From IMG/VR virus record IMGVR_UViG_3300047095_000699, positions 1-43,353 of that record: a DNA stretch of 43,353 nt, one strand, 5' to 3'. This DNA is from a virus. The position numbers and the translations under genes are program-made. Below the pieces are notes generated by a model. The model saw only the letters and a list, made by a program, of their open reading frames with translations, did no database searches and was not told the origin of the DNA. Below, one piece after another: positions 1 to 43,353 of the stretch. Position 1 is the first letter of the stretch, and each line of letters opens with the position of its first letter.

Positions 1-3000
1 AGGGATAGCCGTGAATCCGGTAACGATGCCATCGCTTCCGGCTGTCATCGCCTTTACGAGGGCAGTAACCTCAGCGAGCGTCATCGGCTTCTCAAACATA
101 ATGTCGAGCGCCGGTCTGGCGTTAGGATGATCAGGGCCGACAGTCTCGCCGATCATCACGTCTTTCTGGAGGTAGTTCTTGGCGAGTTCAATGAAGCCTT
201 CGGCGAGAAGACCGAGTTGGTTCTTAACGGTGACGTTGGACTTCTCAGCGTTCACTTCAGCCAGAACCTTGTCGTATTCTGCCTTGGCCTTCTTGTAAGA
301 CGTTTGAGCGGACTTAAGCGCGCTTTCGGCCTCCTTCTTATTGGCAGGATCGGCCTTGGCGGCTCTCTCAGCCCAGATCTCCATACGAGCCTTTGCGCGC
401 TCGTACTTGCCGGTGACCTTGGCGAACTGGTTTTCAAGGACGGTTCTGTTTCCTCGTCTGGCGACAGCGTCAAAGGAGACTGAGTGTTCCACGGAGTCTC
501 CGTACAGACCGTGCGTCTGGTTTACGTTGAGACCTCTGAGCGTGTCGCCCAGCGTACGGCGAGCCATACCCTTGACTAGGTCGATCACCTTGGAAGGCTG
601 TGCGGAGTTTCTGGCTACAGCGGAAGAGTCAATAGGCTCTCCGTTGACCACCACGCGAACGGACTCAGGGCCATAACTTCCGGTGAAGCCGGCGATGAAT
701 CTGCGGACGTTGCTCCATCCTTCGATTCCGTTAGGATCAACAACACCGGAGAATCTGCCGAGCGGATCCTCGAAAGAGGACATCTCAGCGCCGGCGCCTT
801 CAGTCCATCCCTTCTGCGCCCAAAGTTTCTTTTCGGCGAACCACATCAGAGCCTGAAGGTCATCAGCGGTAAGATCCTTGAATGTCTGCGGATCCTTAAG
901 TCTAAGGGCTTCGGTTGCCTTTCTGAAGATCTCCTGAGCAAATCCAAAGTCGCCGCCAACCTGAATGTTGGGGTTCTCAGGTACGCCGTGATCCTGCCAG
1001 ATGTAGTCAACGCCTGTCTCCATACCGGCGGAAAGTCTCCACTGGGATCTCTTTAGGATCCTGTCGTTGATGACTCTATGGATCGTTCTAGCGGCCCACA
1101 CGTCAATGGTGGCCTCTCTGATCGTGCCTTCCAGATTGCCGGCGAAGTTAGGAGTCTTGGGGCCGTCAGTAAGTTGGCGCCAGAGGCCATATAGAACCTG
1201 ACCAACTTTTACAGTGTTGGCGTTGTACTTCTTTCCGTTGGCGCGGAACATCAGGTTCTCCTTGTTTCTGAAGATCTGAGACTGGGACAGTTTGATCGCT
1301 TCGGAGATCTCCTCGTTGTTCAGTCTCTGCTTCTTGCGTCTGGAAGAAACAAGAGCCATCTCGCGCTCAAAAGCCTGATAGTGTTCTTCGGTAAGTCCGG
1401 ATTCAGGATCGCGCTCAAGGAAGTCAAAGATCTCGTAGTCATCCTTGTCGAAGTTGAACTCCTTCAGGATGTTCTTGAGAGCCTTCTTAGCGATGATCAT
1501 ACGCATCGCATCTGCCTCAAATGCGGACACTCCGTTGGAGTCTTTGGACGTGATTCTTCTCTGGAGATCAAGCAACTGCTGGTTGATCCTCTGGAGCGTG
1601 ACATCGTACGCGCCCTGAGAGAACAGGGCGATGGCCTCTTCGGCCTGAATGAAATTCTGCTCAACGTCTGTTCTGGCGCTTGTGGCGCCGAGCGATTCGG
1701 TGAACAGTCCGTACATAGTGCCGTAGATCGAATAGCCGTTCTTCACCATATGGCGGTACCAACCAAGCGCCTTCTTGACGTCAGGATCCTTCGCCGCTTC
1801 GATCGCTTCTTCGACCACGAAGTGGGAAGCCTGTTCTGCGCCTCTCTGGACAACAGGGGAATCCACGCGCAAGGTCTGCTGACCGAACATCGTGTTCATC
1901 AGGTTGTATCCGACCTTCTGGAAGACCAACTTCTTCTTGATCGTACCGGCCTTAACAAGGCCAGCAACAACCTCCGGATCGCTTTCGGTGTACTTTACGG
2001 ACTTGCCGCCCTTCTTGATGGTTTCAAGTTTCGGAGATCCGTCCTTCATAATCTGAAGTCGGGGCGGAAGAACCTCAGGCTGACGAGGATTGATCAGGGG
2101 AAGATCCGCGTAAACGCTACGGATCAACTTGGCGCTGGCCTTGTTTGGAGACTTCTCCAACTTGGCAAGAGCCTGTTCGTTGTGCATCGTGACAGCCGCA
2201 AAGACCGCTTGGTCTTCAGTGGCAAAAGTGCGACCGCCGGCAACGATCTGATAGTTCTTATTTGAATCTACGAGTACTAGATTGCCGCCGATGTTAGCGA
2301 CTAGGATGCCGCTATCACCAGCCATAAGGGTCTTCGGAAGCAAGTTCTTAGCGGCAAGCATATGCCGCTGGCTGAGAATGTGAGCGAACCGCTTGGCTTC
2401 CTCTACGGTGCTGAAAGAGATCTCCTTGGTCGTACCAACCGCCTCGTTGTCGGCAGTGATGTAGTAGCGCTGGTCTTTCTTCTGGTAGATCCTGTAGTTG
2501 ACGCTGATCTGATCAACGTCTCCGGTCTCTTGGTTCTTCTGGCCCTCAAATTCGTGCTTACCGGCAATCTCAACCAGTCCGCTCTTAAGCGTTCTGGCCT
2601 CGCCAAGATTGAGCGGGGAGTAGTTCTGGCTGACTCTAGGATAGGCCAGACGCTCGTTGAACGCCCAGCGCTGAGAGCCGACAGAGAGGTCGCTCATCAG
2701 GTCTAGTCTGAACGTGGTGAAGACGAAGTTCGGCCCTCTCTGCGTATGTTCAAACGGAGAGATGATAGGATTGTTGATCAGCAGGGGGTTGCCAAGGCTG
2801 TCTCTTCCTGTCGTGCCTCTGATGGCGCCAACAGTCTTGAACATAATGTCTCTGATCGCCGCGCCGATCTCGCCGCCACCAAACAGGTCTGCGCCGGCAG
2901 GAGCGTTGCGTTCAGACATACTCTGAAGGTAGCGCTGGAGTTGGTGCTTGAAGATGTCGAACGATCCGCCGAACAGGTCGGAGGCTCTGATCACCTTGCC

Positions 3001-6000: not shown

Positions 6001-7554
6001 GGCTCCGATCTGAGATCTTTCGCCTGAAGTCCACGCTCTCATTTCTTCGTTCGTGTTGAGCGCTGAGTCATACCAAGCAATCAGCGACTTGATGTCGCTA
6101 GATCCGGATCCGAATCTGATGGCTCTCTTGATGCCTGATATCCAAGTGTGCGGATCCTCGCCGGCGCCAAATACCTGATACGCGAGGGTAGCCGCACCGG
6201 CAATGCCACCTTCAATCTTTCTGGTAAGGTAGCCATAGGTCATAGCCACCTCTCCTGTGGCTACCCTGTCTACGCTGGTCTCAAGACCTCCAAAGACGCC
6301 TTTGCCAACGTTCTCCTCAGCAAACAAAACAGGATCGACACGTCCTGCCTTTGTCTTGGCTCGTCTTTCATCTCGTCTCTTAAAAGCCTTAGATTCTTCC
6401 GATTCGCTGAGAGAGAAGTCAGGAACGTCACCAAAAGCAGTGGCTCCGCTAGCGCCGATTCTGAGAGTCATTGCATAGTCAACTGATTCCTTGTAGTCGT
6501 ACTTGTCCGGAACCATATCCAGATCGAAGTCGTCAATCGTGATCGGAGGAGTATCCTTGCCGAACTTTCGAGACGGCTTCTTGTGCTTGAGGCGGATGAA
6601 CAAGTCCATAGCCTCTACCTCATTTAGAGATCTAATCTTAGCAACGACCTCCGGATCCTTCACGGCTCCTTCCGCGCCCATCAACTCCGGCTTTTCTAAA
6701 AACAGTTTGTACAGGTCATCGACCTTCTTCTTGTTTCTGACCTCAGGGTTTTCTTTGAATTGTTTAAGGTAACCAAAGAAATTGCTAAAGGCACCATCTC
6801 GCCTTTCGGCATTGATCTTGTTGAGTTCGATGTTGGTCTCCATCGTCTTCCAAGCGCCCATAATAGCGCCGGCTCCAATGCCCTTATATTCAATAGACTT
6901 TGCGTACGAAGCGGCGCCGTGCAGAAGCAAGTCACTCCAATTCTGGTCTGGGCCGTACTTGTCTCTCATACCGTTCCAAGCCTCGTTGTTGTTGAACTGG
7001 TACTCGACCATAATGGCCTTCTGCGCGTAGTTCAGGCTCTTCCAGAACCTAGGATTCTGGATCTGCTCCTGCCACAATATGCGAGCCATTCTTTCTTTCT
7101 CCTGAGGAGTCAGTTCCGACTCTGACTCAATCTGCACCTGAGCAAGCGCCGCCTCTGTCTCCTTAGCCCTGTCCTCTGTCATCTTTACGACAGCATCGGC
7201 GACCTTCTTCTCGCCTTCGGTCAACTCAGCCTTTGGATTTCTGTAGGCGGCAATTCCAAGTTCCAACTTAGCCTGATTCTGCTGTGCGGCCTTGATCTCC
7301 TCAGGAGTGTATACGACATCGGCAAACGGATCTTCGGACTTCTTTTCAGCCGCGACCTGTTCCGGTGTCTTTACTGGAATTCTGTAGTCAACAGTCTCTG
7401 GCTCCTTAGGCTTCGCGGCGGCGGCAGGATCAGCCGGCGCCGCAAGGTCTTTCCTTGTTACCTTAGCCTCGACTTTCTTGTCCTTCTCAGGAGCAAGAGG
7501 CGAAGGGGAAATCCCTGCGGCAATAGGTTGTGTCGGGAAGTAAGGATTATTCAT
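1..7554 (-). CDS. Giant virion-associated multidomain protein with HExxH metallopeptidase motif (N-terminal 2,518 residues; runs off left edge)
   Basis: The frame is open from the ATG at 7554 to base 1 with no stop. The first 130 or so residues are charged and low-complexity (many K, E, A, P). Residues about 560-860 are rich in Gly and Ala with several hydrophobic stretches that could cross or insert into membrane. Residues 1020-1024 read HEVFH, the HExxH zinc-peptidase signature, followed about 100 residues later by an EEFGASYFEAY segment that could supply the third ligand. A YSPLN motif at residue 1645 resembles motifs in the right-end fragment. It starts 6 bp after the 806-residue gene and is the last gene of the virion operon. 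By position it is probably an ejected internal virion protein of the large polyvalent type; that role is inference. It very likely continues into the frame at 43353-40887. Confidence 0.85.
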   Translation of the reverse strand, partial: MNNPYFPTQPIAAGISPSPLAPEKDKKVEAKVTRKDLAAPADPAAAAKPKEPETVDYRIPVKTPEQVAAEKKSEDPFADVVYTPEEIKAAQQNQAKLELGIAAYRNPKAELTEGEKKVADAVVKMTEDRAKETEAALAQVQIESESELTPQEKERMARILWQEQIQNPRFWKSLNYAQKAIMVEYQFNNNEAWNGMRDKYGPDQNWSDLLLHGAASYAKSIEYKGIGAGAIMGAWKTMETNIELNKINAERRDGAFSNFFGYLKQFKENPEVRNKKKVDDLYKLFLEKPELMGAEGAVKDPEVVAKIRSLNEVEAMDLFIRLKHKKPSRKFGKDTPPITIDDFDLDMVPDKYDYKESVDYAMTLRIGASGATAFGDVPDFSLSESEESKAFKRRDERRAKTKAGRVDPVLFAEENVGKGVFGGLETSVDRVATGEVAMTYGYLTRKIEGGIAGAATLAYQVFGAGEDPHTWISGIKRAIRFGSGSSDIKSLIAWYDSALNTNEEMRAWTSGERSQIGARLASAFSSVTLEEAQAYMAKNGFLNEEFINVGMMKVMPSALVGRGAVFNGAALRGGMGTLGAASRVARTASQLGLISVDNFRRLNIGLYKFGGKVQAIEAATFGMPVKVVGALTLGTGKVIVYAGGGAVQAIGKAANKAIAKIAPEFASSAAEGAIVRKVLSGIGVTSAFYQFDIAKQFAALYGIGKGAEAAGGLLYKYGYRGTNLSGRTFAGALTEASKDASLNLVARNLAKVGNIWDGIPAAAAYDFVKGGWHGGGVALGLGFIQDGARGAVNGFWGGVGMGGAGAVHAVVQMYRSGIYTHSLAENELRTMIKDTPNKTVYEDLIKRANDTQDWNLIPLAVGAIKMAGNNNVKVFLFNEANQIDIPIELLKDDQVLPTDYDISVKDENGNPQTKTFLVQQKKAAAELARTRAKMLAESAKTEAEFAQAEQAAKDAERAEVEAHTEFNDWLSAVRMHGSEGQRLRVRAASTLFKGVHMSGEVGNGVIYVNTDVMANTTLAHEVFHGVQLALYRSQAMNHFANQVFGIRILDGQVVAQDGLISNIELLKQFAELYADDLIGAAPTDDAATQALLQRRRQEARDKIDAAFDILSKDQSGMNPEAIKEAYDTLRRTAEEFGASYFEAYLQRNRKDYLFKQGKYGVLKTLLNNVENYIDFQIKTDLNGDGISLQLQKTLDNRKSKEFEDKLLKMSGIRSTIAQLQARIGKLTVVTSRNKDGSVNTYHFKDPALVDKYQRLIERKLKDLQNINDSIGKVQIGDIFTDASGAHLVIPQVDKLIKNLIQRTEANGNRTNALDLTSLPPDQLAAVLRKAGLTHFLDENGRLKPQERINAEAVERGKKAINIIQTLGPLSGMVIHTDPATGVTRASGVLTKEGLDALVAGDAILPNEAKNALAILEGIKTAMGISTLGGSEYTFLYHGLSHESFDTSGNVVQDRRPKNIVNPTYRKVVPYRLDLVMTTNAADGSKVAPHFEMMVTTLDLEVLLRNGAENFNAQYTLPSGKVIRASDLFGGSFDIFKHQLQRYLQSMSERNAPAGADLFGGGEIGAAIRDIMFKTVGAIRGTTGRDSLGNPLLINNPIISPFEHTQRGPNFVFTTFRLDLMSDLSVGSQRWAFNERLAYPRVSQNYSPLNLGEARTLKSGLVEIAGKHEFEGQKNQETGDVDQISVNYRIYQKKDQRYYITADNEAVGTTKEISFSTVEEAKRFAHILSQRHMLAAKNLLPKTLMAGDSGILVANIGGNLVLVDSNKNYQIVAGGRTFATEDQAVFAAVTMHNEQALAKLEKSPNKASAKLIRSVYADLPLINPRQPEVLPPRLQIMKDGSPKLETIKKGGKSVKYTESDPEVVAGLVKAGTIKKKLVFQKVGYNLMNTMFGQQTLRVDSPVVQRGAEQASHFVVEEAIEAAKDPDVKKALGWYRHMVKNGYSIYGTMYGLFTESLGATSARTDVEQNFIQAEEAIALFSQGAYDVTLQRINQQLLDLQRRITSKDSNGVSAFEADAMRMIIAKKALKNILKEFNFDKDDYEIFDFLERDPESGLTEEHYQAFEREMALVSSRRKKQRLNNEEISEAIKLSQSQIFRNKENLMFRANGKKYNANTVKVGQVLYGLWRQLTDGPKTPNFAGNLEGTIREATIDVWAARTIHRVINDRILKRSQWRLSAGMETGVDYIWQDHGVPENPNIQVGGDFGFAQEIFRKATEALRLKDPQTFKDLTADDLQALMWFAEKKLWAQKGWTEGAGAEMSSFEDPLGRFSGVVDPNGIEGWSNVRRFIAGFTGSYGPESVRVVVNGEPIDSSAVARNSAQPSKVIDLVKGMARRTLGDTLRGLNVNQTHGLYGDSVEHSVSFDAVARRGNRTVLENQFAKVTGKYERAKARMEIWAERAAKADPANKKEAESALKSAQTSYKKAKAEYDKVLAEVNAEKSNVTVKNQLGLLAEGFIELAKNYLQKDVMIGETVGPDHPNARPALDIMFEKPMTLAEVTALVKAMTAGSDGIVTGFTAIP

Positions 7555-7560
7555 CAGATG

Positions 7561-9981: not shown

Positions 9982-9984
9982 AAA

Positions 9985-11028: not shown

Positions 11029-11458
11029 TGTTAGTTCTCCGGCTAAGGAGACCCCTCGCGATTTTATGAACGTTCATAGGTACAAATTTGCCACGCCGAA
11101 TGGCATAACTGGGCTTCTCGTCAGGAAAGTACTGAAGGAACCCTTCCGCAAGAAGATCGCGCGCATCTTCGTCCTTTGCGGCAAGTTGGGCAACAAAGAT
11201 ACACTTTTTACCATAGGGCGGATCCCAGATAAACGGATTTTTTGCGTATTCCTCATCGCACTCGTAGCAGATCATAGCCCCGCTCACTTTGCCGGTCTTT
11301 GGGTCTACCGTGATAATGGTGTTTCCAAGCGAGTAGTGGAAGGCCACGTACTGCTTGAGCGCCTCCTTATCCTCGTAAATCGTGCCGGCAATCTCTTCTG
11401 CCGGAACCGTCTGTTCGACCAGATCTACGACCCCATCGATGACGTTAGGAGCGATCAC
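11015..11458 (-). CDS. Small virion-operon protein, possibly acetyltransferase-like fold, 147 aa
   Basis: The protein is compact, about 50% charged or polar, with no signal or membrane segment. The middle (VAFHYSLGNTIITVDPKTG, then GAMICYECDEEY) alternates strand and helix in a way that recalls GNAT-like small internal virion proteins of T7-type phages, but I see no clear acetyl-CoA loop. The gene overlaps the fibre gene by 4 nt (ATGA) and the downstream ejection-protein gene by 14 nt, so it is translated within the virion operon. The gene is well supported; its function is not. Confidence 0.75.
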   Translation of the reverse strand: MIAPNVIDGVVDLVEQTVPAEEIAGTIYEDKEALKQYVAFHYSLGNTIITVDPKTGKVSGAMICYECDEEYAKNPFIWDPPYGKKCIFVAQLAAKDEDARDLLAEGFLQYFPDEKPSYAIRRGKFVPMNVHKIARGLLSRRTNNGGR

Positions 11459-12831: not shown

Positions 12832-12832
12832 T

Positions 12833-15755: not shown

Positions 15756-15756
15756 T

Positions 15757-16906: not shown

Positions 16907-18061
16907 TCAGAGGTCGAACTTACCGAAGGCGAGCGGGTTATGGATGCAAAGACCCAGAACCATCTCGATCGCGTTAGCAGGGCCACCACCGTTGTCGGTC
17001 AGTTCAATGACCTCAGCGATGTTGCCGCCGTAGCGGATTTCGGTATGTTCAAACGGAATGATGAAGCCCTTATCGAGGTCAGGGGTGAAGTTACCGAAGG
17101 TGCCAGAGGCCGGATCGGTGTCCACATCGCCAAGCCAGTTGGAGACGTGAAGGTTGATCTGACCGAAGTCGCCTTGGAAGACATCGATGTACTGCTTGTA
17201 GGTGGTGTCGCCACCTTCGCGCATCGTACGGATCGGGCTGGAGGAAACAGCGCCACCGTTCGGAGTGGTGTAAACCAGACCGGAGAAGGCGCGCTTCAGG
17301 TTGACGGCAACGAGAGCGTCCCAAGTGCGGGACTGACCGGTCTGCTTGTACAGGGCGGTCAGCATATCCTGACAGTGGGATTCGTTGAGGGCCGAGGCCG
17401 AGGCGCACGTGTTGGCGTTCGCGACAGTACGGCTGGTGCCACCGATAGTCTTCGTGGCAGAGGCCGCGATGATGTTATCGGCAGGGGTGCAGTACTGGTC
17501 AGGAACCGGAAGCGTGGAATCCTTTTCCCACTTGGTCTTCGTCCAAGAGTTAAGCGCGCGGGTGCGGTAGCCGACCGTGCCGTTGTCCGCCTGAGCGGTC
17601 TGGGACGAGGTCAGCGCGACTTCAACGTCACGCTTGATGGCGAGCATCGCCTTAGCCATCTGGCGCGAGCGCTCAGAAGGGGTGCCGGCGAGGCGAACCA
17701 TATTGGATTCGACCAGTTTCGAGACGCGGAACTTGCGTCTGAAGATCTGGGGATAGGCCGCGAGCGTGGCTCTGTAGCCGATGGTGAACTGATCCATCTT
17801 GGCGCCGCCGACCGTATCGGTCATCGTGTTTTCATCCGTACCATCGATGACCGGCTGGACGCGCGGATCGGGGTTGGAATCAACCTGCCACTGGAACAGT
17901 GTGTTAGAGGGTTCAGCGCCCTTTCGGCACATCGCGGTGAAGGGGGTGTCCTTCGCCTCGACCAGCGTGATCATATCCGCGATATCCTCGCGGCGACCGA
18001 CTCTGTTGGCTTCGTTGGCGGCATTGTAGCCCTGCAATTCTCTTTCAAACAATCTAGGCAT
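16907..18061 (-). CDS. Major capsid protein, SU10/DUF5309-like HK97 fold, 384 aa
   Basis: The segment ADMITLVEAKDTPFTAMCRKG followed by FQWQVDSNPDP near residues 28-65 is the usual start of the capsid domain in this family. Further family-like features are the YPQIFRRKFRVSKLVE spine-helix region and the C-terminal beta strands ending in CIHNPLAFGKFDL. Length is normal for the family. It follows the scaffold gene by 29 bp. Translation initiates without a Shine-Dalgarno; an ACCAAATACT leader precedes the ATG. The shell is built with the scaffold and portal products. Confidence 0.88.
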   Translation of the reverse strand: MPRLFERELQGYNAANEANRVGRREDIADMITLVEAKDTPFTAMCRKGAEPSNTLFQWQVDSNPDPRVQPVIDGTDENTMTDTVGGAKMDQFTIGYRATLAAYPQIFRRKFRVSKLVESNMVRLAGTPSERSRQMAKAMLAIKRDVEVALTSSQTAQADNGTVGYRTRALNSWTKTKWEKDSTLPVPDQYCTPADNIIAASATKTIGGTSRTVANANTCASASALNESHCQDMLTALYKQTGQSRTWDALVAVNLKRAFSGLVYTTPNGGAVSSSPIRTMREGGDTTYKQYIDVFQGDFGQINLHVSNWLGDVDTDPASGTFGNFTPDLDKGFIIPFEHTEIRYGGNIAEVIELTDNGGGPANAIEMVLGLCIHNPLAFGKFDL

Positions 18062-18090: not shown

Positions 18091-19101
18091 CTAACGAGAC
18101 TTTAACCTTGCCTCAATAAGGAGCGCTAGATCATCGCGAGAACCACTCTGTGAAAACCTACTTTCGGCTTCCTTGGCATTCTGGAATTTTGTTGAGTTTG
18201 CCGTGGGGCTAACCGAAGGGCGAGTGGGCTGTAGTTGAGGTTTTCTCAGGTTCTGCTGAACAGAGGATTTGGCGTTTCTCATCTGACGGCTTTGTAGGCC
18301 ATAGACGAAGTCCCCGATGACCAACTTGTAGTCAGGGAACTGAACCAATTCAGGGAAGTTCTTGAGGAGTGCCACGGCTGTCTGGTACTCCTTGGTATCC
18401 TTCTTCTTCCACCACGGATATTCGGCCTCAGCGACCGGATCGAAGTGTCTGCGAGCGTTGATGAACTGAGACTGCGCCGGAATGTTGACTTCGATATCCT
18501 TGAGGGCGTTGATCTTCATCTTGCGGACTTCTGCTTCGTCCACGTTGAGGAATTCACCGTTACCTTTCGGGATCTCTCCGCCATACGGATTCTCTTCGCA
18601 CCAGTCTCTGATCTGTCTAGCCTGTTCCAGCGCTTTGTTTAGACCGGCGTCATCCAGCACGTTTCCGTACGGATTCTTCGTTCTAGACGGCGTGGGCAGT
18701 TCCTTCTCGTTCCGCAGTTTATCCAGTTCGGACTTCAGCCTTTCGGCTTCAGCCTCCGCCTCGCGGCGCTTAGCAGTGATCTTATCGATCCGCTTCTGGA
18801 TATGCTTGGGGATACCATTCCCCTCTTCTCTATCATCAGATCCAGAGTCCTCTGCCGAGTTCTCTTCTGATCTGTTGCTATCGCCAATGTCGCGCTGGAG
18901 TTCCTCTGCCAGAGGGTCATCGAGGGCGGTTGATTGGTCTTCCACCGAGTTGTTATCGGATCCGGTGGCCTCCGAGGAGCCGAGACCAGTTTCGGCTCCA
19001 GTCTCGATGAGGGCGGCAAGACCCTCTAGCGACAGAGCGCTGGATTCGCTCTGCGGATTTGCCTGTGAGGCAATATCATTGTTGTTTTCTGCGTTGGGCA
19101 T
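18091..19101 (-). CDS. Scaffolding protein, 336 aa
   Basis: The N-terminal third is Ser/Glu/Asp/Asn-rich and disordered. A central coiled coil (about residues 100-140, RRREAEAEAERLKSELDKL type) and a basic helical C-terminus follow. This is the classic layout of phage scaffolds, which bind capsid through the C-terminus. The gene lies directly upstream of the capsid gene, as expected. There is no Shine-Dalgarno before the ATG at 19101; a 142-bp gap separates it from the next gene upstream. Confidence 0.82.
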   Translation of the reverse strand: MPNAENNNDIASQANPQSESSALSLEGLAALIETGAETGLGSSEATGSDNNSVEDQSTALDDPLAEELQRDIGDSNRSEENSAEDSGSDDREEGNGIPKHIQKRIDKITAKRREAEAEAERLKSELDKLRNEKELPTPSRTKNPYGNVLDDAGLNKALEQARQIRDWCEENPYGGEIPKGNGEFLNVDEAEVRKMKINALKDIEVNIPAQSQFINARRHFDPVAEAEYPWWKKKDTKEYQTAVALLKNFPELVQFPDYKLVIGDFVYGLQSRQMRNAKSSVQQNLRKPQLQPTRPSVSPTANSTKFQNAKEAESRFSQSGSRDDLALLIEARLKSR

Positions 19102-19501: not shown

Positions 19502-21937
19502 TTACATCATTGGCTGTTCGCCTTCGGGAGGCATTCCCTCAGGAGGAGCGCCACCGCCGCCGCCCATCTGTTGTTCTACCATAGCGATCGCTTCCTGTTC
19601 GGACATACCCTGCTCCATAAGTTGGGCCACGGCTTGCATCGCGGCGTCACCCTGAGCGTTCTGAGCCATCGACTCCTGTGTCTGCTGGCCCCTCATAGCC
19701 GCAACCTCTTGGTTGACGTCCTGCTGAGCCTGAGCCGTGCCTTGAGCCTTACCCTTTTGGGCTTCCTTGGCCTGATCAATGAGGCTCTTGACCTGATCGG
19801 CAAGGTTCGGGCCTTGCGGCGCAACGCCTGTTCTACCGGTCTCCTTGTTCTGGGCCTGTTGAACGGACATAGACAGGTTCTGGACGTAGGTCTGGAACAA
19901 TTGCTGGAAGATCTGATCCCCTTGGAGCGCTTGCTGGGCCTTCGGGTTCTGCTGAAGGATCTGCTGGGCCAACTGCAACTTTGTCGGGGCTGATGGATCA
20001 TTCTCAACCAGAGCAGGAGCGTTACCAAGGAGCATAAGACCAATGTCAGTCTGAACGTCCCTGAACATCTTCTGGGAAGCCTGTTCGTTGGCGACAATGA
20101 GTTCCTTCGCGGCGTCAGGAGAGATGGTCTCAATGACAAGTTTGACGAGTTTAGATCTGTCAACGATGCCGGACTGGTCGAGCGGAACGGCGAACTTGGT
20201 GATCGCGTCCAGTTTCTCCATAACGAGGTTCGTGTCCACTTCGCGCACGTCAAACTTAACGATGAAGTCAAAGCCTCCGTGGATCTCTGTCGCTCTTGCC
20301 GGAAGATCAATGCCGGTGATGCGAACCTTTTCTTCGGGGGAAAGATACTGCAAGGCTAGCGAGAAGACTTGTTGGTAGATCTCAGTCCAAGCCATAAGCC
20401 ATCCGTTAACCGTGGTCTGCTGGATAAGTTGAGATCTGACGTCTTCAACGTACTTGGAGGTAAGTCCATAGTAAGCCGCGTGTTGGGCTTCGACTCGCTC
20501 GATCATCGAAAATGCCATTTGTGGATTGCCGGCAGGAGGCTCAAGGAAAGAGTAGTCGTCCTTTGTCGTCACAGGCAACACGACAGCCGGCCCGATTCGG
20601 TTAATGGCGCCAATTCGCTTAGCCACCTTCATCGGCGGAAGCGTTTCGATCGCCGTACGATCTCTGAGGGAATCGTGCTGAGCCTTGATTTCGTCCTGAT
20701 CCGTTCTGCTTACTTCAGGGACTCCGCGAGACTCCATAATGGGCCTTCGGGTGATCTCCCTGCTCCAGCCAACGAAAGGATATCTACCGTGGTAGTAATC
20801 AAGGATTTCGTGCTTGGCGTAAAGTTTGTTGCCGACCTGAGGAGAAAACACCGTGTAGTAGATAGCAGGGAGTCCGTCCTTGTTGATCTGCCGTGCGTAT
20901 GCGTACACGATCTCGATCATATTCTTACCTCTCCAGACGTTTGTCGTAAGGACATTAGTCACCGGAGTGAGTGACGGATCGTTGTACATAGACGCTTTAC
21001 CAAGTTGAGCGGCGGCGGCTTCTACGAATTCCTTGTCCCATCCGTCATCTACAACCATTGCTCTAAGTTCGACTTCAGTGAGGAACGTGCGGCGGAAGAT
21101 CACGCGCGCGCGCTGAAGGTCTGTAGTCTCCTGAGGGAACGTGATTTCATCGTAAGGCTTAAGGGCAGTAACGCTTGGGGCGTTCTTGAAGACATAAGGC
21201 TCTTCGATTTCAGTCTCTCCCTTTTCGCGGAGTTCGCGAACCATCCTGAGCGCCTGATTGGGCTTTATGCCTTCCATAATCTGGAGAAGCGAATGAGCCA
21301 GATAGTCGTCATTTTCGCCTGACTGGATCATCTGCGTGATGTTAGACAGGACTCCTTCAGGATCCTGCTGTTTGGTCATCTCTTCGATGGCCTTAAGGTC
21401 GTCCATCGTAACCTTCTGCCGGCGAACCGCCGACTGCTGATCCCAAGTAACGTGGAAGACCGTCCATCCGTAGGTTAGAGCGTACTGGGCGCCAAGATAG
21501 GCTTCCATATACATTTCTCTTCCGTAACGGTTCTCAAGCATCCAGCGCATCAAGTTAGCCGAAGCGGAGGCTGGGCCACCGTCTTCAACGGTAACGCCGC
21601 TGACGCGGAGCGTGGATCTCTGGAACGCGGTAATCAGAAGCGCGCACAAGTCATTGATCGTTCGGTCAACAAGCCTGACGCGAACGTCAGAAGCGCCTTC
21701 CCACGGCATAGCAGGATTGCCATCTCCGCGCACATCGCTGTGCTTTTTGCCGTCATCAGACTGTCCGTCCCAGCGGCAATAACGAATGTCGTCAAGGGCG
21801 GCGAGGCGATCAAGTGACGAGCCGTTGTAGAGCGACTCGTTGTACTCCTTCGTCAGGTTGCCGATGTCCGGCGTGTCAGACGCTTGTGCTGTCGGGTCGC
21901 TTGTCGGCGAGTTCCAAGGTGTTCTTTGGGGCTTCAT
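19502..21937 (-). CDS. Portal protein, 811 aa
   Basis: Features typical of large podoviral portals are present: an N-terminal head (YNESLYNGSSLDRLAALDDI), a wing with a membrane-protein-like helix region (MYMEAYLGAQYALTYGWTVF), a stem region around residues 440-520 (SRTDQDEIKAQHDSLRDRTA), and a long Gln/Ala/Glu-rich helical C-terminus that would form the barrel. The extreme C-terminus is Gly/Pro/Met-rich (MGGGGGAPPEGMPPEG). The gene lies one small gene downstream of the terminase and overlaps that HTH gene by 62 nt. It forms the dodecameric DNA gateway of the capsid. Confidence 0.88.
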   Translation of the reverse strand: MKPQRTPWNSPTSDPTAQASDTPDIGNLTKEYNESLYNGSSLDRLAALDDIRYCRWDGQSDDGKKHSDVRGDGNPAMPWEGASDVRVRLVDRTINDLCALLITAFQRSTLRVSGVTVEDGGPASASANLMRWMLENRYGREMYMEAYLGAQYALTYGWTVFHVTWDQQSAVRRQKVTMDDLKAIEEMTKQQDPEGVLSNITQMIQSGENDDYLAHSLLQIMEGIKPNQALRMVRELREKGETEIEEPYVFKNAPSVTALKPYDEITFPQETTDLQRARVIFRRTFLTEVELRAMVVDDGWDKEFVEAAAAQLGKASMYNDPSLTPVTNVLTTNVWRGKNMIEIVYAYARQINKDGLPAIYYTVFSPQVGNKLYAKHEILDYYHGRYPFVGWSREITRRPIMESRGVPEVSRTDQDEIKAQHDSLRDRTAIETLPPMKVAKRIGAINRIGPAVVLPVTTKDDYSFLEPPAGNPQMAFSMIERVEAQHAAYYGLTSKYVEDVRSQLIQQTTVNGWLMAWTEIYQQVFSLALQYLSPEEKVRITGIDLPARATEIHGGFDFIVKFDVREVDTNLVMEKLDAITKFAVPLDQSGIVDRSKLVKLVIETISPDAAKELIVANEQASQKMFRDVQTDIGLMLLGNAPALVENDPSAPTKLQLAQQILQQNPKAQQALQGDQIFQQLFQTYVQNLSMSVQQAQNKETGRTGVAPQGPNLADQVKSLIDQAKEAQKGKAQGTAQAQQDVNQEVAAMRGQQTQESMAQNAQGDAAMQAVAQLMEQGMSEQEAIAMVEQQMGGGGGAPPEGMPPEGEQPMM

Positions 21938-22104: not shown

Positions 22105-23712
22105 TCAGTAGGAAAATGGCTGGGTGGCTTTGTAGGTCTTGCTGTCCTCAAATTCTGGATTCATCACCGCTAGATATCTCAGGCAGTCCACCGGATCCTT
22201 GCTGGCCCCCTTCTGACCGTCCTGCCCAGTCCACTCCCTAAGGCAGTAGATCAGGTTCTGGCAGTCTTCTGAGATGTAAAGTTTAGGGCAGTTCAAGCCG
22301 GACAGGGGCTGGCTCATATCGTAGGCAAGCCAGTTGTTGATCAGGCCAACGCCCTCTTCGATCGCGATGCCGGCGGCTGGGATCAGGAACATCGGCCTGT
22401 CCCCTTCTTGGAACAGGTCGATCAGGGACGTACCACCGTCTCTGCCGGCTACCTGTTGCGCCCCCGCGCGCGGGTCTACGTAGCGCTCTACGATCGTTTC
22501 ACCCTTCTCAAGGAAGAAGATCAGTTCCTTGTACTCATCCAGACCTCTGCCGGCGTTGGTCATTTGCGCCGGCCCGATCTTACCGTCCGGCTTGTCAGAG
22601 GGTAGCGCCCATTCTCCAACCGAAGCGTCAGGCCACTCCCTGTAGATGAACCTAGTTCCGTCTGGGGTTACCCTGCACCAGATCATAAACCAGTTTCTGG
22701 CGCCGGCTGGATCTACAGCCGTATAGTTGGCGCCTTCCTTTGGCACGGCGCTAGCAGGAACGATGTGAACCTCGCCAAATCTGGCAAACTGGGTACCCTG
22801 AAGGCTCTCCGCGTATCCATACGCGCGGATCTTGATCTCGTAGGAAGACCGGCCCTTCAGCCCCTTCGCAAGGTGTTCAAATGGGTTATAGGGGTTAAAT
22901 TCTGAGAAGAACCACATCGCCATAGCCCCTCTTCGGACGCATTTGGCTATAAAAGGCATTTCTCCAGACTTACAACCTTGCACGGTATTCATCCCATCCA
23001 TCAGGCGCGCCGGCTTTGTCTCGATGACCCTGCAACCGGCTAGGTAGTCTTTGACCACCTGTGTATAACCTGTGACCGGTGTGAATGTAACCAGCAGTTT
23101 GCCCTTTCTGGTGACGTTTCGGAACCGGAGCGTTTCCACCCAGTCCAGCGGCACAAGTTCATCGCACCAGATCAGATCGGTCTCGCCACCTTCAATGACC
23201 GTACGCTCCTGCGCGTAGTTCATAAAGAAGCACTGCGAACCGTTCGGAAGGACAAAAGAATTCTCCGAAAATCCGTTCTTCTGCGTGTAGGCGATGTTCG
23301 TTACCTTTGTCTTCTTGGCCTGTTTGAGTTCGCTGGGTAGGTACTTCCATATCACGCTCTGTTGCATCTGGATGCTCGACTGGCTTGTCGTGTGTAGGCA
23401 CCATACGCGGGAGTTCGGCTTGTTGATCAGAGTATATACCACCCGCTTGGCGGCGTATTCGGTCTTCCCCGCTCGATTGCCTCCAGAAAGAAGGAGTTCA
23501 TCGGCCTCTCCAAGGACTCTGTCTGCGTCTTTCCAGTACCAAGGTTCGTAGCCGTGGCGGTAAGGATCTGCTTTCTCAGCGACAATCTTATCCTCTCTTG
23601 CTTGGAGGAACTCAATTGTCTTTTCTTCGCCATACGTTGCTACAAGCGCCTTAATCTGCTCCGCAGAAGGCGCGTGTATCACCGGATGAGGCGTCAGCGC
23701 GATCCGCTCCAT
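22105..23712 (-). CDS. terL: Terminase large subunit (packaging ATPase/nuclease), 535 aa
   Basis: Walker A is GGNRAGKT at residues 77-84; Walker B is DLIWCDE with D184 and E185; the coupling motif is LVTFTPVTGY (about 207-216). Candidate RNase H-like nuclease acidic residues are D334 (AVDPAG), D413 (YVDPRAG) and D506/D509 (KDPVD). Length is normal. It would cut concatemers and pump DNA through the portal. It starts 2 bp after a small basic gene and heads the virion operon. Confidence 0.95.
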   Translation of the reverse strand: MERIALTPHPVIHAPSAEQIKALVATYGEEKTIEFLQAREDKIVAEKADPYRHGYEPWYWKDADRVLGEADELLLSGGNRAGKTEYAAKRVVYTLINKPNSRVWCLHTTSQSSIQMQQSVIWKYLPSELKQAKKTKVTNIAYTQKNGFSENSFVLPNGSQCFFMNYAQERTVIEGGETDLIWCDELVPLDWVETLRFRNVTRKGKLLVTFTPVTGYTQVVKDYLAGCRVIETKPARLMDGMNTVQGCKSGEMPFIAKCVRRGAMAMWFFSEFNPYNPFEHLAKGLKGRSSYEIKIRAYGYAESLQGTQFARFGEVHIVPASAVPKEGANYTAVDPAGARNWFMIWCRVTPDGTRFIYREWPDASVGEWALPSDKPDGKIGPAQMTNAGRGLDEYKELIFFLEKGETIVERYVDPRAGAQQVAGRDGGTSLIDLFQEGDRPMFLIPAAGIAIEEGVGLINNWLAYDMSQPLSGLNCPKLYISEDCQNLIYCLREWTGQDGQKGASKDPVDCLRYLAVMNPEFEDSKTYKATQPFSY

Positions 23713-29990: not shown

Positions 29991-30000
29991 GGCTTTCCGG

Positions 30001-30873: not shown

Positions 30874-30891
30874 CGGTGTTGGGGGTGAAGG

Positions 30892-31338: not shown

Positions 31339-31406
31339 TGGTGTTATGGGTGAAGGAGTACCAGTAGATCAGGAATTCTAGGGATGTCAAGCGCGCGGGT
31401 GTCATA
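31339..31406 (-). promoter_or_regulatory. Early promoter with TATGACA box and leader
   Basis: Minus strand: TATGACA (31406-31400), 9 bp, TTGACA (31390-31385), 16 bp, TCTACT (31368-31363) with a TGA extension, then CCTTCACCC (31356-31348) and ACACCA before the ATG. The heptamer includes the stop codon of the upstream gene. Confidence 0.8.
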
Positions 31407-31968: not shown

Positions 31969-32039
31969 CGGTGTAGGATTGGGTGAAGGCACACAGTAGA
32001 ACACCAGTTCCTCCCTTTGTCAACTACGACTTTGTCATA
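31969..32039 (-). promoter_or_regulatory. Early promoter with TATGACA box and leader
   Basis: Minus strand: TATGACA (32039-32033), 9 bp, TTGACA (32023-32018), 17 bp, TCTACT (32000-31995), then CCTTCACCC (31989-31981) and CTACACCG before the ATG. The box contains the TGA stop of the ribbon-helix-helix gene. Confidence 0.8.
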
Positions 32040-32211: not shown

Positions 32212-32512
32212 CGAGGCAACGGTTCAGGATCACCGGCGCGCCGGCTTGGCCTAGAGAGCCGATGATGTTGTAGTCGATCCACTCGACCGCGTCCTCTTCG
32301 CTCTGACCGCTCTCGATCAGCGCCTCCACGATCAGGCCGTAGTCGTAGACCACGACCGGCTCGATGCCGGACGTCAGGCCGATGATGGCCTGATCGTAGA
32401 TCTCAGCCGGCTCCAGAAGGAGCGCGGCCTCGTTGGCCTCCGCGATCTGTTCGCGCAGGGCGGAGACCTTCGGCTTCGATTTTCCGCGCTTGGGCCGCTT
32501 AGAAGGGGACAT
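32198..32512 (-). CDS. Conserved-type phage protein of unknown function, 104 aa
   Basis: After a basic tail (SPSKRPKRGKSKPK) comes a compact helical domain with EPAEIYDQAIIGLTSGIEPV, then ALIESGQSEEDAVEWIDYNI. This D-x-A-I-I-G ... A-x-E-W-I-D-Y-N pattern recurs in small proteins from many phages and has no assigned function. It overlaps the Rad52-like gene by 14 nt and the regulator gene by 14 nt, so all three are one unit. Confidence 0.72.
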   Translation of the reverse strand: MSPSKRPKRGKSKPKVSALREQIAEANEAALLLEPAEIYDQAIIGLTSGIEPVVVYDYGLIVEALIESGQSEEDAVEWIDYNIIGSLGQAGAPVILNRCLDDYL

Positions 32513-33290
32513 CGTCTTGGGTCTCCGGTTCTTCGGCGCTCAGGGCCATCGGGCGGTCGCCCATCGACTGATCCAGCGCGGATCGGAACGCCTGATCCTT
32601 CGCGCTGATCGCGCCCTTGTAAGGCTTGGGCTGGTAATTTTCCTGCCACCACTGGAGGCTCTTCGGCGGGAGGGATCCAAGCGTCTTGCCCTGTTGCTTG
32701 CCGAAGGGAATGACGACATCGCGCCAGTTGCCGGACGTAGCCGGCGCGGCGGCGCGCGCAGGGCTGGGCTTGGACTCAACGTGGGCCGGCTCGTAAGGTG
32801 CCGGCGCAGTGGCGCCAAGGCTGGGAGGATTCCACTTGAAGCGTACGCCCTCCTTCGTCTTGCCCTGATAGATTCCGGAGTCAGTGACTTCAGCCCACGC
32901 GTCAGGCATCTCGTAGAGATACCGGCCTACCCCTAGGTTCACCACGGCCCTCTTCATCGCGCCGGACGCGGCGCTCTTGAACGGATCGATGTCATCGGTC
33001 TTGTTGAGTTCGACCTCGCAGGATCCGCAGACCGTGCGCTGGAACTCGCCTTCTCCGGCGATCGTGATCGCGACCGTGCAGACGGCGGAGTTGCCGATCT
33101 GGCGGAAGTCTTCGCGGTGGCTCCAGTCCTCGCCGTAGACTTCGTCTAGGCGCTCCATTGCCGCGCGGTTGTCGATGTACGCAAGGCATCGCGCCCAGAT
33201 CGTACCGTCCGGCTTGGAGCCGCACGATTGAAGGCGCCATTCGATCCGGTCAGGGCTGAACGGCGCACGTAGTTTTTGGATGTTACTCAT
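32499..33290 (-). CDS. Rad52/Rad22-type single-strand annealing protein with ExoX-like C-domain and SSB-like tail, 263 aa
   Basis: Residues 31-60 (ARCLAYIDNRAAMERLDEVY, then GEDW) and 98-126 (TDDIDPFKSAASGAMKRAVV, then LGVGRYLY) match the Rad52/Rad22 annealing core. After a Pro/Ala linker, residues 191-216 (DVVIPFGKQQGKTLGSLPPK) resemble the small PFGK-xxGK domain found at the end of exonuclease X-like proteins. The protein ends EEPETQDDVPF, closely resembling the acidic tail of bacterial SSB. It would anneal complementary strands in recombination with the RecE-like nuclease. It overlaps both neighbours. Confidence 0.8.
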   Translation of the reverse strand: MSNIQKLRAPFSPDRIEWRLQSCGSKPDGTIWARCLAYIDNRAAMERLDEVYGEDWSHREDFRQIGNSAVCTVAITIAGEGEFQRTVCGSCEVELNKTDDIDPFKSAASGAMKRAVVNLGVGRYLYEMPDAWAEVTDSGIYQGKTKEGVRFKWNPPSLGATAPAPYEPAHVESKPSPARAAAPATSGNWRDVVIPFGKQQGKTLGSLPPKSLQWWQENYQPKPYKGAISAKDQAFRSALDQSMGDRPMALSAEEPETQDDVPF

Positions 33291-35337: not shown

Positions 35338-35408
35338 TATGACACACGGCGATTTGACATCTGTAGAAAATCTGTTCTAATGCTAGGTCTTCACCCAGTA
35401 CTATACCT
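35338..35408 (+). promoter_or_regulatory. Rightward early promoter with TATGACA box and leader
   Basis: Plus strand: TATGACA (35338-35344), 9 bp, TTGACA (35354-35359), 16 bp, TCTAAT (35376-35381) with a TGT extension, then CTTCACCC (35389-35396) and ACTATACCT before the ATG. It reads into the recombination and replication genes. Confidence 0.8.
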
Positions 35409-35627
35409 ATGAACAACATCACTCCAGAAATCCGGAAGCGCGTCTACGATCTCTACTACGCGTGGCTCGACCAGATCACGATCCGTGGTCACAGCAAGTG
35501 GGGATCCGCTCGCTACAACAAAGCGGACGAGAAGGCCGAGGCGCTTGAGAACGAAGCCTCCCTGCTCGTCTTCGGCGACACCAACCACACGGCGACCGAA
35601 GCCTACGAAGAGAAGGAGGCCGAGTAA
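35409..35627 (+). CDS. Small early hypothetical protein, 72 aa
   Basis: Not recognised. An N-terminal helix with aromatic residues (EIRKRVYDLYYAWLDQITIR) is followed by a polar loop and an acidic helical tail (NHTATEAYEEKEAE). It has a strong early promoter and leader of its own and lies first in the rightward unit, positions typical for a host-takeover or regulatory protein; that is inference. Confidence 0.7.
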   Translation: MNNITPEIRKRVYDLYYAWLDQITIRGHSKWGSARYNKADEKAEALENEASLLVFGDTNHTATEAYEEKEAE

Positions 35628-35630
35628 GCC

Positions 35631-35685
35631 TTGACAGCCTCTAGAACTTCTGATCTACTCTAACCCTTCACCCAGTACTACACCT
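35631..35685 (+). promoter_or_regulatory. Rightward early promoter and leader (no TATGACA box)
   Basis: Plus strand: TTGACA (35631-35636), 17 bp, TCTACT (35654-35659) with a TGA extension, then CCTTCACCC (35665-35673) and ACTACACCT before the ATG. It begins 3 bp after the upstream stop. No heptamer precedes it. Confidence 0.78.
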
Positions 35686-35874
35686 ATGATCTACATCAAG
35701 CCCAGCACCGTCCGTAAGTTCATCAAGAGCCACGGCAAACGCACGTCCAAGGAATTCCTTGAGGCGCTCGATCGCTACATCGAGAAGAAACTTCTCACCG
35801 GCATCGCCGAACACAACGGCGGCAAGAAGACTCTCGATGCCGCTGTCGCGGCCTACATCTTCGGCAACCGCTGA
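35686..35874 (+). CDS. Histone-fold-like small protein, 62 aa
   Basis: The pattern is that of a minimal single-domain histone: a short first helix (STVRKFIKSHG), a loop with KRTSKEF, a long second helix (EALDRYIEKKLLTGIAEHNG), a GKKT loop and a short third helix (LDAAVAAYIFG). The KRxSxEFLEALD motif is close to that of bacterial and archaeal histones. Length is right for a protein made of the fold alone. It has its own promoter and sits before the RecE-like gene. It may compact phage DNA or remodel host chromatin. A similar-looking unrelated three-helix protein cannot be excluded. Confidence 0.65.
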   Translation: MIYIKPSTVRKFIKSHGKRTSKEFLEALDRYIEKKLLTGIAEHNGGKKTLDAAVAAYIFGNR

Positions 35875-35902
35875 TCTAAACCTTCCACCCACCCATACAC
35901 CA

Positions 35903-36712
35903 ATGAAGAACCCGCAAGACATCGAAGTCACCGCCACTCTGGCGGCTGACGAGTACCACAGCCGCGCCGGCCTCAGCAAGACCCAGTTGGGCTACTTGCT
36001 CAAGTCGCCGTCTCACCTCAAGGCGTACCTCAGCGCGCCGAAGAGCGAACCCAGCAAGGATCAGATCTTCGGCACCGCCGTCCACGCGGCTGTGCTGGAG
36101 CCTGAGCGCTTCGCCACCGAATGGGTCGTTGCTCCGGTCGTTGATCGCCGCACCACGGTCGGCAAGCAGATCTGGCAGGAGTTCCAGACTGCCAACGCCG
36201 GCAAGACCCTGATCGATGCCGAAGACCGCCAGCGCGTCCTCGACATCGCCGCGTCCCTCCGCGACAACCTGATCTTCGGCGGCGCCCTTCGCAACGGCAC
36301 CCCTGAACTCAGCGTGTTCGCCACCGCCGACAATGGCCTTCCGATCAAGGGTCGCTTCGATCTCTGGGATCCGGAGACCAACACGATCTATGACGTCAAG
36401 ACGTGTACCAGCGCGGACAAGTTCACGTTCCCCCGCGAGATCCGCAAGTGGGCATACGCCCTACAAGCAAGCCACTATCTGGACTTGGCTCGCCGCGCCG
36501 GCTTCGGCAACGCGCAGACCAAGTTCGTCTTCGTGGCTGTCGAGAAGACCGAGGCGCCCTTCGCGGTCGCGCTCTACCAGATCGATGCCGCCAGCCTGAC
36601 GAAGTGGGACGGCATCCGCACCAGCCTTCTAGATCAGTGGAAGAAGGCCGACCACATCGGCACGTACCCCACGTACTCCTACTCCACCACGATCATCGAT
36701 GTCGAAGCCTAA
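35903..36712 (+). CDS. RecE/exodeoxyribonuclease VIII-like PD-(D/E)XK nuclease, 269 aa
   Basis: The start at 35903 follows a leader variant (CCTTCCACCC); a longer frame would run through the histone-like gene. Landmarks are SKTQLGYLLKSPSHLKAYL (28-43), FGTAVHAAVLEPERF with H61, GRFDLWD with D153, YDVKT with D164 and K166, and QASHY with Q188 and Y192. These are the motifs of the RecB/RecE (DUF3799) nuclease family. It would resect DNA ends to give tails for the Rad52-like annealing protein. Confidence 0.85.
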   Translation: MKNPQDIEVTATLAADEYHSRAGLSKTQLGYLLKSPSHLKAYLSAPKSEPSKDQIFGTAVHAAVLEPERFATEWVVAPVVDRRTTVGKQIWQEFQTANAGKTLIDAEDRQRVLDIAASLRDNLIFGGALRNGTPELSVFATADNGLPIKGRFDLWDPETNTIYDVKTCTSADKFTFPREIRKWAYALQASHYLDLARRAGFGNAQTKFVFVAVEKTEAPFAVALYQIDAASLTKWDGIRTSLLDQWKKADHIGTYPTYSYSTTIIDVEA

Positions 36713-36713: not shown

Positions 36714-36980
36714 ATGAAGACCGACACTCCCAACGCGTTCCTGATCGAACGCTCCGCCTACGAGGCTCTGAACAGGCACTGCCTGTTCACCCTCGTCCAC
36801 GGCTACCTCCGCTCCAGATCCGTGGGCGGCGTGGCTCGCGTCCCGAACAAGGAAGCCAGCGAGTACTTCGGCGTCACGCCGAGGTACATCACCGCCGCGA
36901 TCACCGCTCTCCGCAAGGCCGGCCTGATCACCCATCACGAATACGATGGGCGCAACCGAATCGTATACCTCGCTAAGTAA
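36714..36980 (+). CDS. Winged-helix DNA-binding protein, 88 aa
   Basis: The start at 36714 is 1 bp after the nuclease stop. NKEASEYFGVTPRYITAAIT, then ALRKAGLITHHEYDGRNRIV, is a winged helix with recognition helix and wing. The stop overlaps the initiator start (TAATG). It may bind the origin together with the next protein or regulate the operon. Confidence 0.75.
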   Translation: MKTDTPNAFLIERSAYEALNRHCLFTLVHGYLRSRSVGGVARVPNKEASEYFGVTPRYITAAITALRKAGLITHHEYDGRNRIVYLAK

Positions 36981-37660
36981 TGGAAAACCCATCACTAGGA
37001 TTTGTGGGGATCTTCATCCCCCGCGAACTTTGGCTTAAGCCGGATCTCAGCGTCACGGAGAAGGTTCTCCTTGGCGTGATCGATGCCCTCGACAAGGGTG
37101 ACGGCGCTTGGGCCAGCAACGCGTACCTTGCCAACACCGTTGGCGTGGGCGAGCGCCAGATCAGGGAGTACCTGACTAGGCTTGAAACCGCCGGCGTCCT
37201 GAAGCGCTGGTCGGTCGATGGCAACCGGCGCCTCGCTTCCGCCTTCGCCCAGTCGAACTCCAGTTCCAAGGCGGAAAACCTCCTACCCCCTAGGCAGGAA
37301 ATCGCCACCAATAGAGTAGTAGATAAAGTAAAAGATAATAAGAATAAGGGAGTCCTTGTAAGCGTTGCTCTTGTTAAGTTCAAGGTGGAGTCGGACAACG
37401 AGGTGGTCGAACTGATCAACTCGTTCATCGATCACCGAAAGGAGATCAAGCGTCCGCTTACCCAGCGCGCGCTGGAGTCGAACATCGAGACCATCGAGGC
37501 CGAGTCCAAGCGCCACTCGATCACGTTCAAGGTCGCCGCCAAGGAAATGATCGAAGCCTCCATCCGCAACGGATGGTACGGACTGTTCCCTGTTCGCCGG
37601 CCTGATCAGAAGCACGGCAAGAAACCCTTGAGCGCGGAGGATCACAGCCGTGGATTCTGA
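36980..37660 (+). CDS. Replication initiator, winged-helix plus DnaD-like C-domain, 226 aa
   Basis: N-terminal residues 1-75 include IFIPRELWLKPDLSVTEKVL and ASNAYLANTVGVGERQIREY, then LTRLETAGVLKRW: a typical winged helix of phage replication O/DnaD-type initiators. A Lys/Asn-rich linker (about residues 105-125, AT-rich DNA) leads to a helical C-domain ending EMIEASIRNGWYGLF, a DnaD-like tail. It would bind the origin and recruit the loader encoded next. It overlaps the loader gene by 11 nt. Confidence 0.78.
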   Translation: MENPSLGFVGIFIPRELWLKPDLSVTEKVLLGVIDALDKGDGAWASNAYLANTVGVGERQIREYLTRLETAGVLKRWSVDGNRRLASAFAQSNSSSKAENLLPPRQEIATNRVVDKVKDNKNKGVLVSVALVKFKVESDNEVVELINSFIDHRKEIKRPLTQRALESNIETIEAESKRHSITFKVAAKEMIEASIRNGWYGLFPVRRPDQKHGKKPLSAEDHSRGF

Positions 37661-38330
37661 AAAAGGAAAGTGCATCCACTGCGGAGGCGAGACCATCGGC
37701 CTTGTCTTCGGATCCATCTCCTTCCCCGCTCCGGAGGTCTGCTCCAAGAAGGAGTGCGTTGAGACCAGCACCGCCGCCTTCATCGCGAAGGAGGCCGAGC
37801 GCAACAAGAAGCCGGCGCTGGAGATCCCAGCCGTCTTCGCCGACACGGATCCGGATCGTCTTCCCCCCAAGTTCAAGCAAGTCTGCGAGTCTTGGACTCC
37901 TGAGTCCGGCAAGGGTAGCCTCCTGATCCACGGCACGACTAGGGTCGGCAAGAGCCGCACCGCTTGGTACGTCTGCAACCGCCTACACGCCTCTGGAGTC
38001 AAGATTACGGCCCTGACTATGCGCGACATCGAGTTCGGGCTTCAGGAGGGCTTCCAGAGGGGTGATTGGCACCGTGTGGTTGACCGGTGGTGCCGCTCCC
38101 AGTTCCTCTACATTGATGATCTGGGCAAGGAGAAGTTGACCGAGCGTACCCAGTCCTGCCTGTTCCAGATCGTGGACGACCGGAGCGCCAACAAGCGCCC
38201 GACCCTGATCACCACGAACTACACAGGCCAGAGCCTAGGCGCACGGTTCCCAGATCCGGAGACAGGCGCGGCCTTTGTGGCGAGGCTCAGGGAGTTCTAC
38301 GACCTGTGCGCGACTGCGGCGGTCAACTGA
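37650..38330 (+). CDS. DnaC/IstB-like AAA+ helicase loader, 226 aa
   Basis: The GTG start at 37650 has a Shine-Dalgarno (GGAGG, 9 nt upstream). An N-terminal four-cysteine finger (C8, C11, C31, C36) precedes the AAA+ core: Walker A GTTRVGKS (95-102), Walker B FLYIDDLG (D156, D157) and sensor LITTNY. It would load the host replicative helicase at the phage origin with the initiator. No helicase gene was seen. It overlaps the convergent rusA gene by 8 nt. Confidence 0.85.
   Translation: MDSEKGKCIHCGGETIGLVFGSISFPAPEVCSKKECVETSTAAFIAKEAERNKKPALEIPAVFADTDPDRLPPKFKQVCESWTPESGKGSLLIHGTTRVGKSRTAWYVCNRLHASGVKITALTMRDIEFGLQEGFQRGDWHRVVDRWCRSQFLYIDDLGKEKLTERTQSCLFQIVDDRSANKRPTLITTNYTGQSLGARFPDPETGAAFVARLREFYDLCATAAVN

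Positions 38331-43353: not shown

What the first reader, a model, noticed from the sequence alone, without database searches (positions are those of the whole stretch)
1..43353. CATG and AGCT appear to be completely absent from the genome
Reading every 'cat' and every 'gct' in the window, I found none followed by g or preceded by a, respectively, so both self-complementary tetramers seem to be missing. At 43 kb and this base composition roughly 150 of each are expected. Other palindromes (GATC, GGCC, GCGC, TCGA, ACGT, CCGG, CTAG, TTAA) are present. CATG avoidance forces codon choices before Met, which explains why start codons follow T, G or A here. The simplest reading is elimination of sites for two restriction systems (NlaIII-like and AluI-like specificities) carried by the usual host.
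Basis: seen in the sequence. Interest (0 to 1): 0.92.

Follow-up and report, generated by a model that had tools for sequence, protein, structure and literature searches.

The report
Phage genome purged of restriction sites
This virus of bacteria has erased from its whole genome not two but about eighteen different short DNA words of the kind that bacterial restriction enzymes cut, and its relatives have each erased a partly different set, so the genome looks like a negative imprint of the defences its lineage has met.

Summary
It is also far too modest. The window lacks about 18 site classes: AGCT, CATG, CCNGG, CGWCG, GGWCC, GCWGC, CYCGRG, GDGCHC, YGGCCR, AGGCCT, CCGCGG, GTCGAC, TTCGAA, TGCGCA, CTGCAG, CACGAG, CCCGT, GCCCGC. 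About 1,100 sites are missing, evenly along the genome. Synonymous codon shuffling restores them, so codon usage is not the cause. The window is a tailed-phage contig with a SU10-type capsid protein and no recognisable methyltransferase or anti-restriction gene. Eleven IMG/VR relatives each lack 13-25 motifs of a 32-motif panel, but sets differ: GATC, GCGC, CATG, ACGT, CCGG, CGWCG, GGWCC and YGGCCR are near zero in some and normal or enriched in others. Bipartite Type I-like sites are not missing. Best explanation: selection by many Type II restriction systems in the host population, answered by site elimination instead of DNA modification. Site avoidance is a known strategy; the number of motifs and their turnover among relatives make this an extreme variant. 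The host is unknown, so no matching restriction gene could be shown. Enrichment of GATC and GCCGGC beyond a constrained null is unexplained.

The parts
1..43353 (.). Whole contig: zero copies of about 18 restriction-site-like motif classes (about 1,100 missing sites)
16907..18061 (-). major capsid protein, SU10 type; query that found the relatives
   Evidence: PF17236 3e-37, phrog_1328; relatives 72-96% identical
22105..23712 (-). terminase large subunit; used for the tree
   Evidence: PF03237 4.9e-8, phrog_2; 69-92% identical in 11 relatives
18091..19101 (-). probable scaffolding protein; at about 18900-18950 the window has lost, by a synonymous Asp codon (GATGAC for GACGAC), the one CGACG site that four relatives keep
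   Evidence: phrog_8865 E=4.8e-4; residual site
19502..21937 (-). portal protein
   Evidence: tblastn to annotated portal proteins and to Phage C75C1
32499..33290 (-). Rad52/Erf-like single-strand annealing protein
   Evidence: PF04098 4.8e-13; Erf-annotated phage proteins 39% identical
35759..36712 (+). exonuclease VIII-like nuclease
   Evidence: PF12684 7.7e-25, phrog_412 3.9e-62
36980..38330 (+). O-like replication initiator (36980-37660) and IstB/DnaC-like helicase loader (37650-38330)
   Evidence: phrog_678, PF13730 and PF01695
39273..39422 (+). tRNA-Thr(TGT) and tRNA-Arg(TCT)
   Evidence: ARAGORN

Best explanation
The window is a contig of a phage lineage that escapes host restriction by not having the sites. 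The host population carries many Type II restriction-modification systems. Genomes that keep a site are cut, so surviving lineages lose sites, mostly by synonymous change, until whole site classes reach zero. When the locally common systems change, pressure on a motif ends and its sites return by ordinary mutation while other motifs are purged; hence relatives carry different, almost all-or-none sets. Shown: total absence of about 18 site classes, independence from codon usage, synonymous differences at sites that relatives keep, switching of motifs between relatives, no bipartite Type I avoidance, no recognised modification gene. Inferred: that the cutter is host Type II restriction enzymes and that the host population has, or recently had, of the order of 20 of them.
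For: Zero counts against 8-145 expected per motif under synonymous codon shuffling; even along the genome. Missing words assemble into known Type II-style degenerate sites such as CYCGRG, GDGCHC, YGGCCR, GGWCC (names of sites from general knowledge). Related contigs have near bimodal motif states and switch 0-14 of about 31 scorable motifs with distance. 19 of 23 GGWCC sites of G010 are replaced in the window with the peptide unchanged. No Type I-like gapped word is missing in five contigs apart from extensions of the known sites and one borderline case. No methyltransferase, anti-restriction or defence family in the window. Order-2 simulations give 0 such words in 20 runs. Published surveys find elimination of orthodox Type II sites in non-temperate phages lacking other protection (PMC6286503); bacteria with about 16 R-M systems per genome exist (PMC8262939).
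Against: Host unknown, so no R-M gene is matched. Several missing words are asymmetric (CACGAG, CCCGT, GCCCGC; in relatives ACGGT, TCCGCC, GCACGC) and some have no enzyme that I can name; the 2018 survey saw little avoidance outside orthodox Type II. GATC and GCCGGC are enriched beyond the constrained null, which simple elimination does not predict. Many early genes are unassigned, so a hidden anti-restriction gene cannot be excluded.
Confidence: 0.87

Rival explanations
1. Composition, codon usage or a mutational spectrum makes these words rare without selection on sites.
For: Codon usage in the window is uneven, e.g. AGA-rich for Arg, CAT rare.
Against: Shuffling synonymous codons with the same usage restores 8-145 copies of each; relatives with the same G+C keep full numbers of the same words; loss is word-exact, e.g. 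CGSCG 395 beside CGWCG 0.
Confidence: 0.02
2. Same mechanism, different history: no single host has about 20 systems; the phage lineage passed through many hosts with few systems each, and the missing set is the sum of past pressures.
For: Sets differ between relatives; AGCT, CCWGG, GRGCYC and AGGCCT are absent in all 12 contigs as if under older or wider pressure. Intermediate depletion exists: CGATCG 10/37 in G008, GDGCHC 23/72 in G002.
Against: Exact zeros for about 18 classes at once need pressure that is maintained or very recent, because relatives show sites at near-normal numbers when a motif is not avoided (CATG 113/121 in G007, GGWCC 27/44 in G010).
Confidence: 0.35
3. The sites are avoided because of a phage-encoded nuclease or another sequence-specific process of the phage itself, not host restriction.
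For: The genome encodes exonuclease VIII-like and RusA-like nucleases and many unassigned early genes.
Against: Those nucleases are not known as site-specific cutters of such words; no R-M gene found; no MTase-like motif in credible genes of 12 contigs. About 18 specificities would need many genes.
Confidence: 0.03
4. Artefact of library preparation, cloning or assembly that removes fragments with certain sites.
For: Only metagenome contigs of this group are available.
Against: Contigs are continuous with long open frames across positions where relatives have sites; independent contigs from different metagenomes share sets (G001, G004, G005, G008) while others differ. A digest would break contigs, not recode them synonymously.
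Confidence: 0.01

Closest known systems
Restriction-site elimination by dsDNA phages (survey: Rusinov 2018, PMC6286503)
   Same: Near-total loss of Type II-like sites, no Type I avoidance, no recognised modification gene
   Different: About 18 site classes at zero in one 43 kb genome and a partly different set in each relative; the survey reports elimination in about a tenth of genomes; the parts I read give no count per phage, so I cannot rank this against its maximum
Anabaena phage A-4L (KF356198)
   Same: Many words absent at once, 22 in 41 kb, including GGWCC, CTCGAG, TTCGAA, CTGCAG, GTCGAC
   Different: About 603 missing sites against 1,121; keeps some of the window's missing words; unrelated capsid and terminase genes as far as the protein searches show
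Phage T7 of E. coli (NC_001604)
   Same: Classic loss of restriction sites; 27 absent words
   Different: Nearly all are contexts of two or a few motifs (GATC, CCWGG) plus some 6-mers; 403 missing sites
Phage C75C1 (OQ984151)
   Same: Nearest GenBank relative: terminase 32%, portal 28% identical; also lacks GATC, CGWCG, TTCGAA, GDGCHC
   Different: Keeps AGCT, CCWGG, GCWGC; has an annotated DNA methyltransferase

Membership tests
Restriction-site elimination (sense of Rusinov 2018) | Observed/expected below 0.1 with more than 15 sites expected | tested here: met
   15 classes with 0 observed and 17-142 expected under an order-2 Markov model (not the paper's own estimator)
Restriction-site elimination (sense of Rusinov 2018) | The site is the target of an R-M system of the host | not testable with these tools
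   Host not found
Restriction-site elimination (sense of Rusinov 2018) | Type II sites avoided, bipartite Type I sites not | tested here: met
   Only extensions of the missing words among 3+3 gapped patterns, one borderline exception in G008. Some missing words are asymmetric and could be Type IIS, IIG or III
Restriction-site elimination (sense of Rusinov 2018) | Non-temperate phage | tested here: inconclusive
   No integrase or repressor family recognised and no capsid relative in 84,980 genomes, but many genes are unassigned
Restriction-site elimination (sense of Rusinov 2018) | No other anti-restriction strategy such as DNA modification | tested here: inconclusive
   None recognised; base modification itself not testable
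Tailed phages with SU10-type capsid protein | Capsid protein of PF17236 with terminase and portal genes beside it | tested here: met
   nearest GenBank capsid proteins under 30% identical, so no genus is claimed

The most novel reading that the evidence does not exclude
The phage family is a readable negative imprint of the restriction repertoire of an uncultured host population, including specificities I cannot assign to a known enzyme (CCCGT, GCCCGC, GGCNGCC in the window; ACGGT, TCCGCC, GCACGC in relatives). Words that are not purged (GATC, GCCGGC) are enriched beyond what the constraints explain, so a second force beside cutting shapes site content.
Probability: 0.3. Interest if true: 0.8.

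Novelty: new variant of a known kind. Interest (0 to 1): 0.62.

Why it matters
Site avoidance is usually described for one or a few words per phage. A family whose members each lack 13-25 words of one panel, and switch them between relatives, lets the restriction arms race be read as discrete events: which specificities acted, and how fast a 43 kb genome is cleared and refilled. It suggests predicting host R-M repertoires, and hosts, from uncultured phage sequence, and bears on the open question why some bacteria pile up so many R-M systems.

Tried and rejected
Host search: capsid alignment against 84,980 genomes gave no relative; window 7000-26900 against 386 cyanobacterial genomes gave no match, but only two candidates per genome were scored, so this negative is weak. 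Exonuclease and Rad52 relatives are scattered over many hosts. Papers naming the IMG samples or C75C1 gave nothing; literature searches found no earlier report of comparable multi-motif loss, within an open-access library only. I first took the residual CGACG of four relatives for a conserved non-coding element; it is inside the scaffolding gene, so that idea was dropped. A DPPY-like motif at 11018-11503 was rejected as a methyltransferase (147 aa ORF, no Pfam match). Type I avoidance was looked for and not found. Compensation by neighbouring words was tested as the cause of GATC and GCCGGC enrichment and does not suffice.

Full report
Observation. The window is a whole IMG/VR viral record of 43,353 bases. 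AGCT and CATG are absent on exact count, against maximal-order Markov expectations of 142 and 96; every other tetramer has at least 10 copies.

It is only the beginning. Minimal absent words of 5 and 6 bases assemble into degenerate sites: CCWGG and CCSGG (together CCNGG), CGWCG, GGWCC, GCWGC, CYCGRG, GDGCHC, YGGCCR, AGGCCT, CCGCGG, GTCGAC, TTCGAA, TGCGCA, CTGCAG, and the asymmetric CACGAG, CCCGT and GCCCGC. GCACGC and GCAGGC have one copy each where 20 and 37 are expected, and GGCNGCC is missing too. By a uniform measure the window lacks 23 words, about 1,121 expected sites, one per roughly 39 bases. They are missing evenly: 165-231 expected and 0 found in each sixth. My assembly of words into degenerate sites is a reading; for example GCWGC and asymmetric GCAGC cannot be told apart.

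Chance and composition. Shuffling synonymous codons among the window's genes, keeping proteins and codon counts, gives on average 145 AGCT, 95 CATG, 109 CCWGG, 116 CGWCG, 91 GCWGC, 76 GGWCC and 8-69 of the other missing classes. Order-2 simulations gave no absent word of this strength in 20 runs. The loss is not codon usage.

What carries it. The contig is a tailed phage with SU10-type capsid protein, scaffold, portal and terminase genes, Rad52-like and exonuclease VIII-like recombination genes, an O-like initiator, an IstB/DnaC-like loader, RusA and a lytic transglycosylase. No methyltransferase, restriction, defence or anti-restriction family was recognised. Many early genes are unassigned.

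Relatives. Two capsid searches of IMG/VR gave 18 related loci; eleven contigs of 16-47 kb were read whole (G010 is L015). Each has its own list of absent words, up to 34 words and 1,778 expected sites in G002. On a panel of 32 motifs the states are nearly all-or-none. AGCT, CCWGG, GRGCYC and AGGCCT are gone in all 12. CATG is present in G006, G007 and G011 (113/121 in G007), while GATC, 556 copies in the window, is 0 there and in G009. GCGC is 1 or 0 in G002, G006 and G009. CCGG is absent in ten of twelve but has 315 copies in the window. CGWCG, GGWCC, YGGCCR, ACGT, CCCGT and ACGGT also switch. Contigs lack 13 to 25 panel motifs; some panel words are nested (TGCGCA in GCGC, CGATCG in GATC), so these are upper counts. 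G001, G004, G005 and G008, 77-85% identical, share one set; G006 and G011, 81% identical, differ in 8 of 31. The same set in contigs from separate metagenomes speaks against an assembly artefact.

How sites go. In codon alignments with G010 (85% amino-acid, 79% nucleotide identity) all 23 GGWCC sites of G010 are missing from the window, 19 with the peptide unchanged, whereas GATC, not avoided in either, shares 71 sites. The direction of these changes is inferred. The one CGWCG site kept by G001, G004, G005 and G008 lies in the scaffolding gene; the window has a synonymous Asp codon there. A single surviving site is what an enzyme needing two sites would tolerate; that is inference.

Mechanism. 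Word-exact loss of Type II-like sites, synonymous replacement, near bimodality, turnover and the lack of bipartite Type I avoidance fit selection by Type II restriction enzymes. This agrees with the published survey, where elimination concerns orthodox Type II sites and non-temperate phages without DNA modification (PMC6286503). That some bacteria carry enough systems is documented: about 16 per genome in Microcystis (PMC8262939). Whether one host population or a succession of hosts is responsible is open.

Host. Not found. Two leads only: few genes have Shine-Dalgarno-like sequences (25% against 16% background; T7 100%), and Anabaena phage A-4L shows the broadest loss of distinct motifs among nine named phages tested. 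Neither proves a cyanobacterial host, and the empty spacer search gives no support to it.

Unexplained. GATC (411 against 264) and GCCGGC (79 against 40) exceed a null that keeps proteins, codon counts and all missing motifs forbidden. I have no mechanism for this.

Verdict. Observation confirmed and greatly extended; interpretation right in kind, too small in scale. A known strategy in an extreme, mosaic form.

Noticed in passing
window 1-43353: GATC (556 copies) and GCCGGC (112) are enriched beyond a null that keeps proteins, codon counts and the missing motifs forbidden. In relatives GATC is either enriched or exactly absent.
   Followed up: partly
window about 27200-32000 (-) and 35350-35700 (+): At least eight early genes share a repeated upstream block: TTGACA, then GATCTACT-like, then the leader CCTTCACCCA just before the start codon, without a Shine-Dalgarno sequence. 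Looks like a repeated early promoter and leader.
   Followed up: partly
window 1-7554 (-): An open frame of at least 2,518 aa runs off the contig's left end; only a weak, sub-threshold Pfam match (DUF7178). Probably a giant virion protein.
   Followed up: no
G003 (L030-L032), L005: A relative with 90% capsid identity to the window but 43% G+C (40% in L005), against 56% in the window: strong synonymous drift in composition between close relatives.
   Followed up: no
L045 (Anabaena phage A-4L): The asymmetric tetramer AATC/GATT appears to be completely absent from the 41 kb read, beside GATC and GGCC.
   Followed up: no
L003 in G002, terminase gene G002:C1:4302-5903: The terminase reading frame of this relative holds one TAG stop; sequencing error, pseudogene or recoding not examined.
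   Followed up: no
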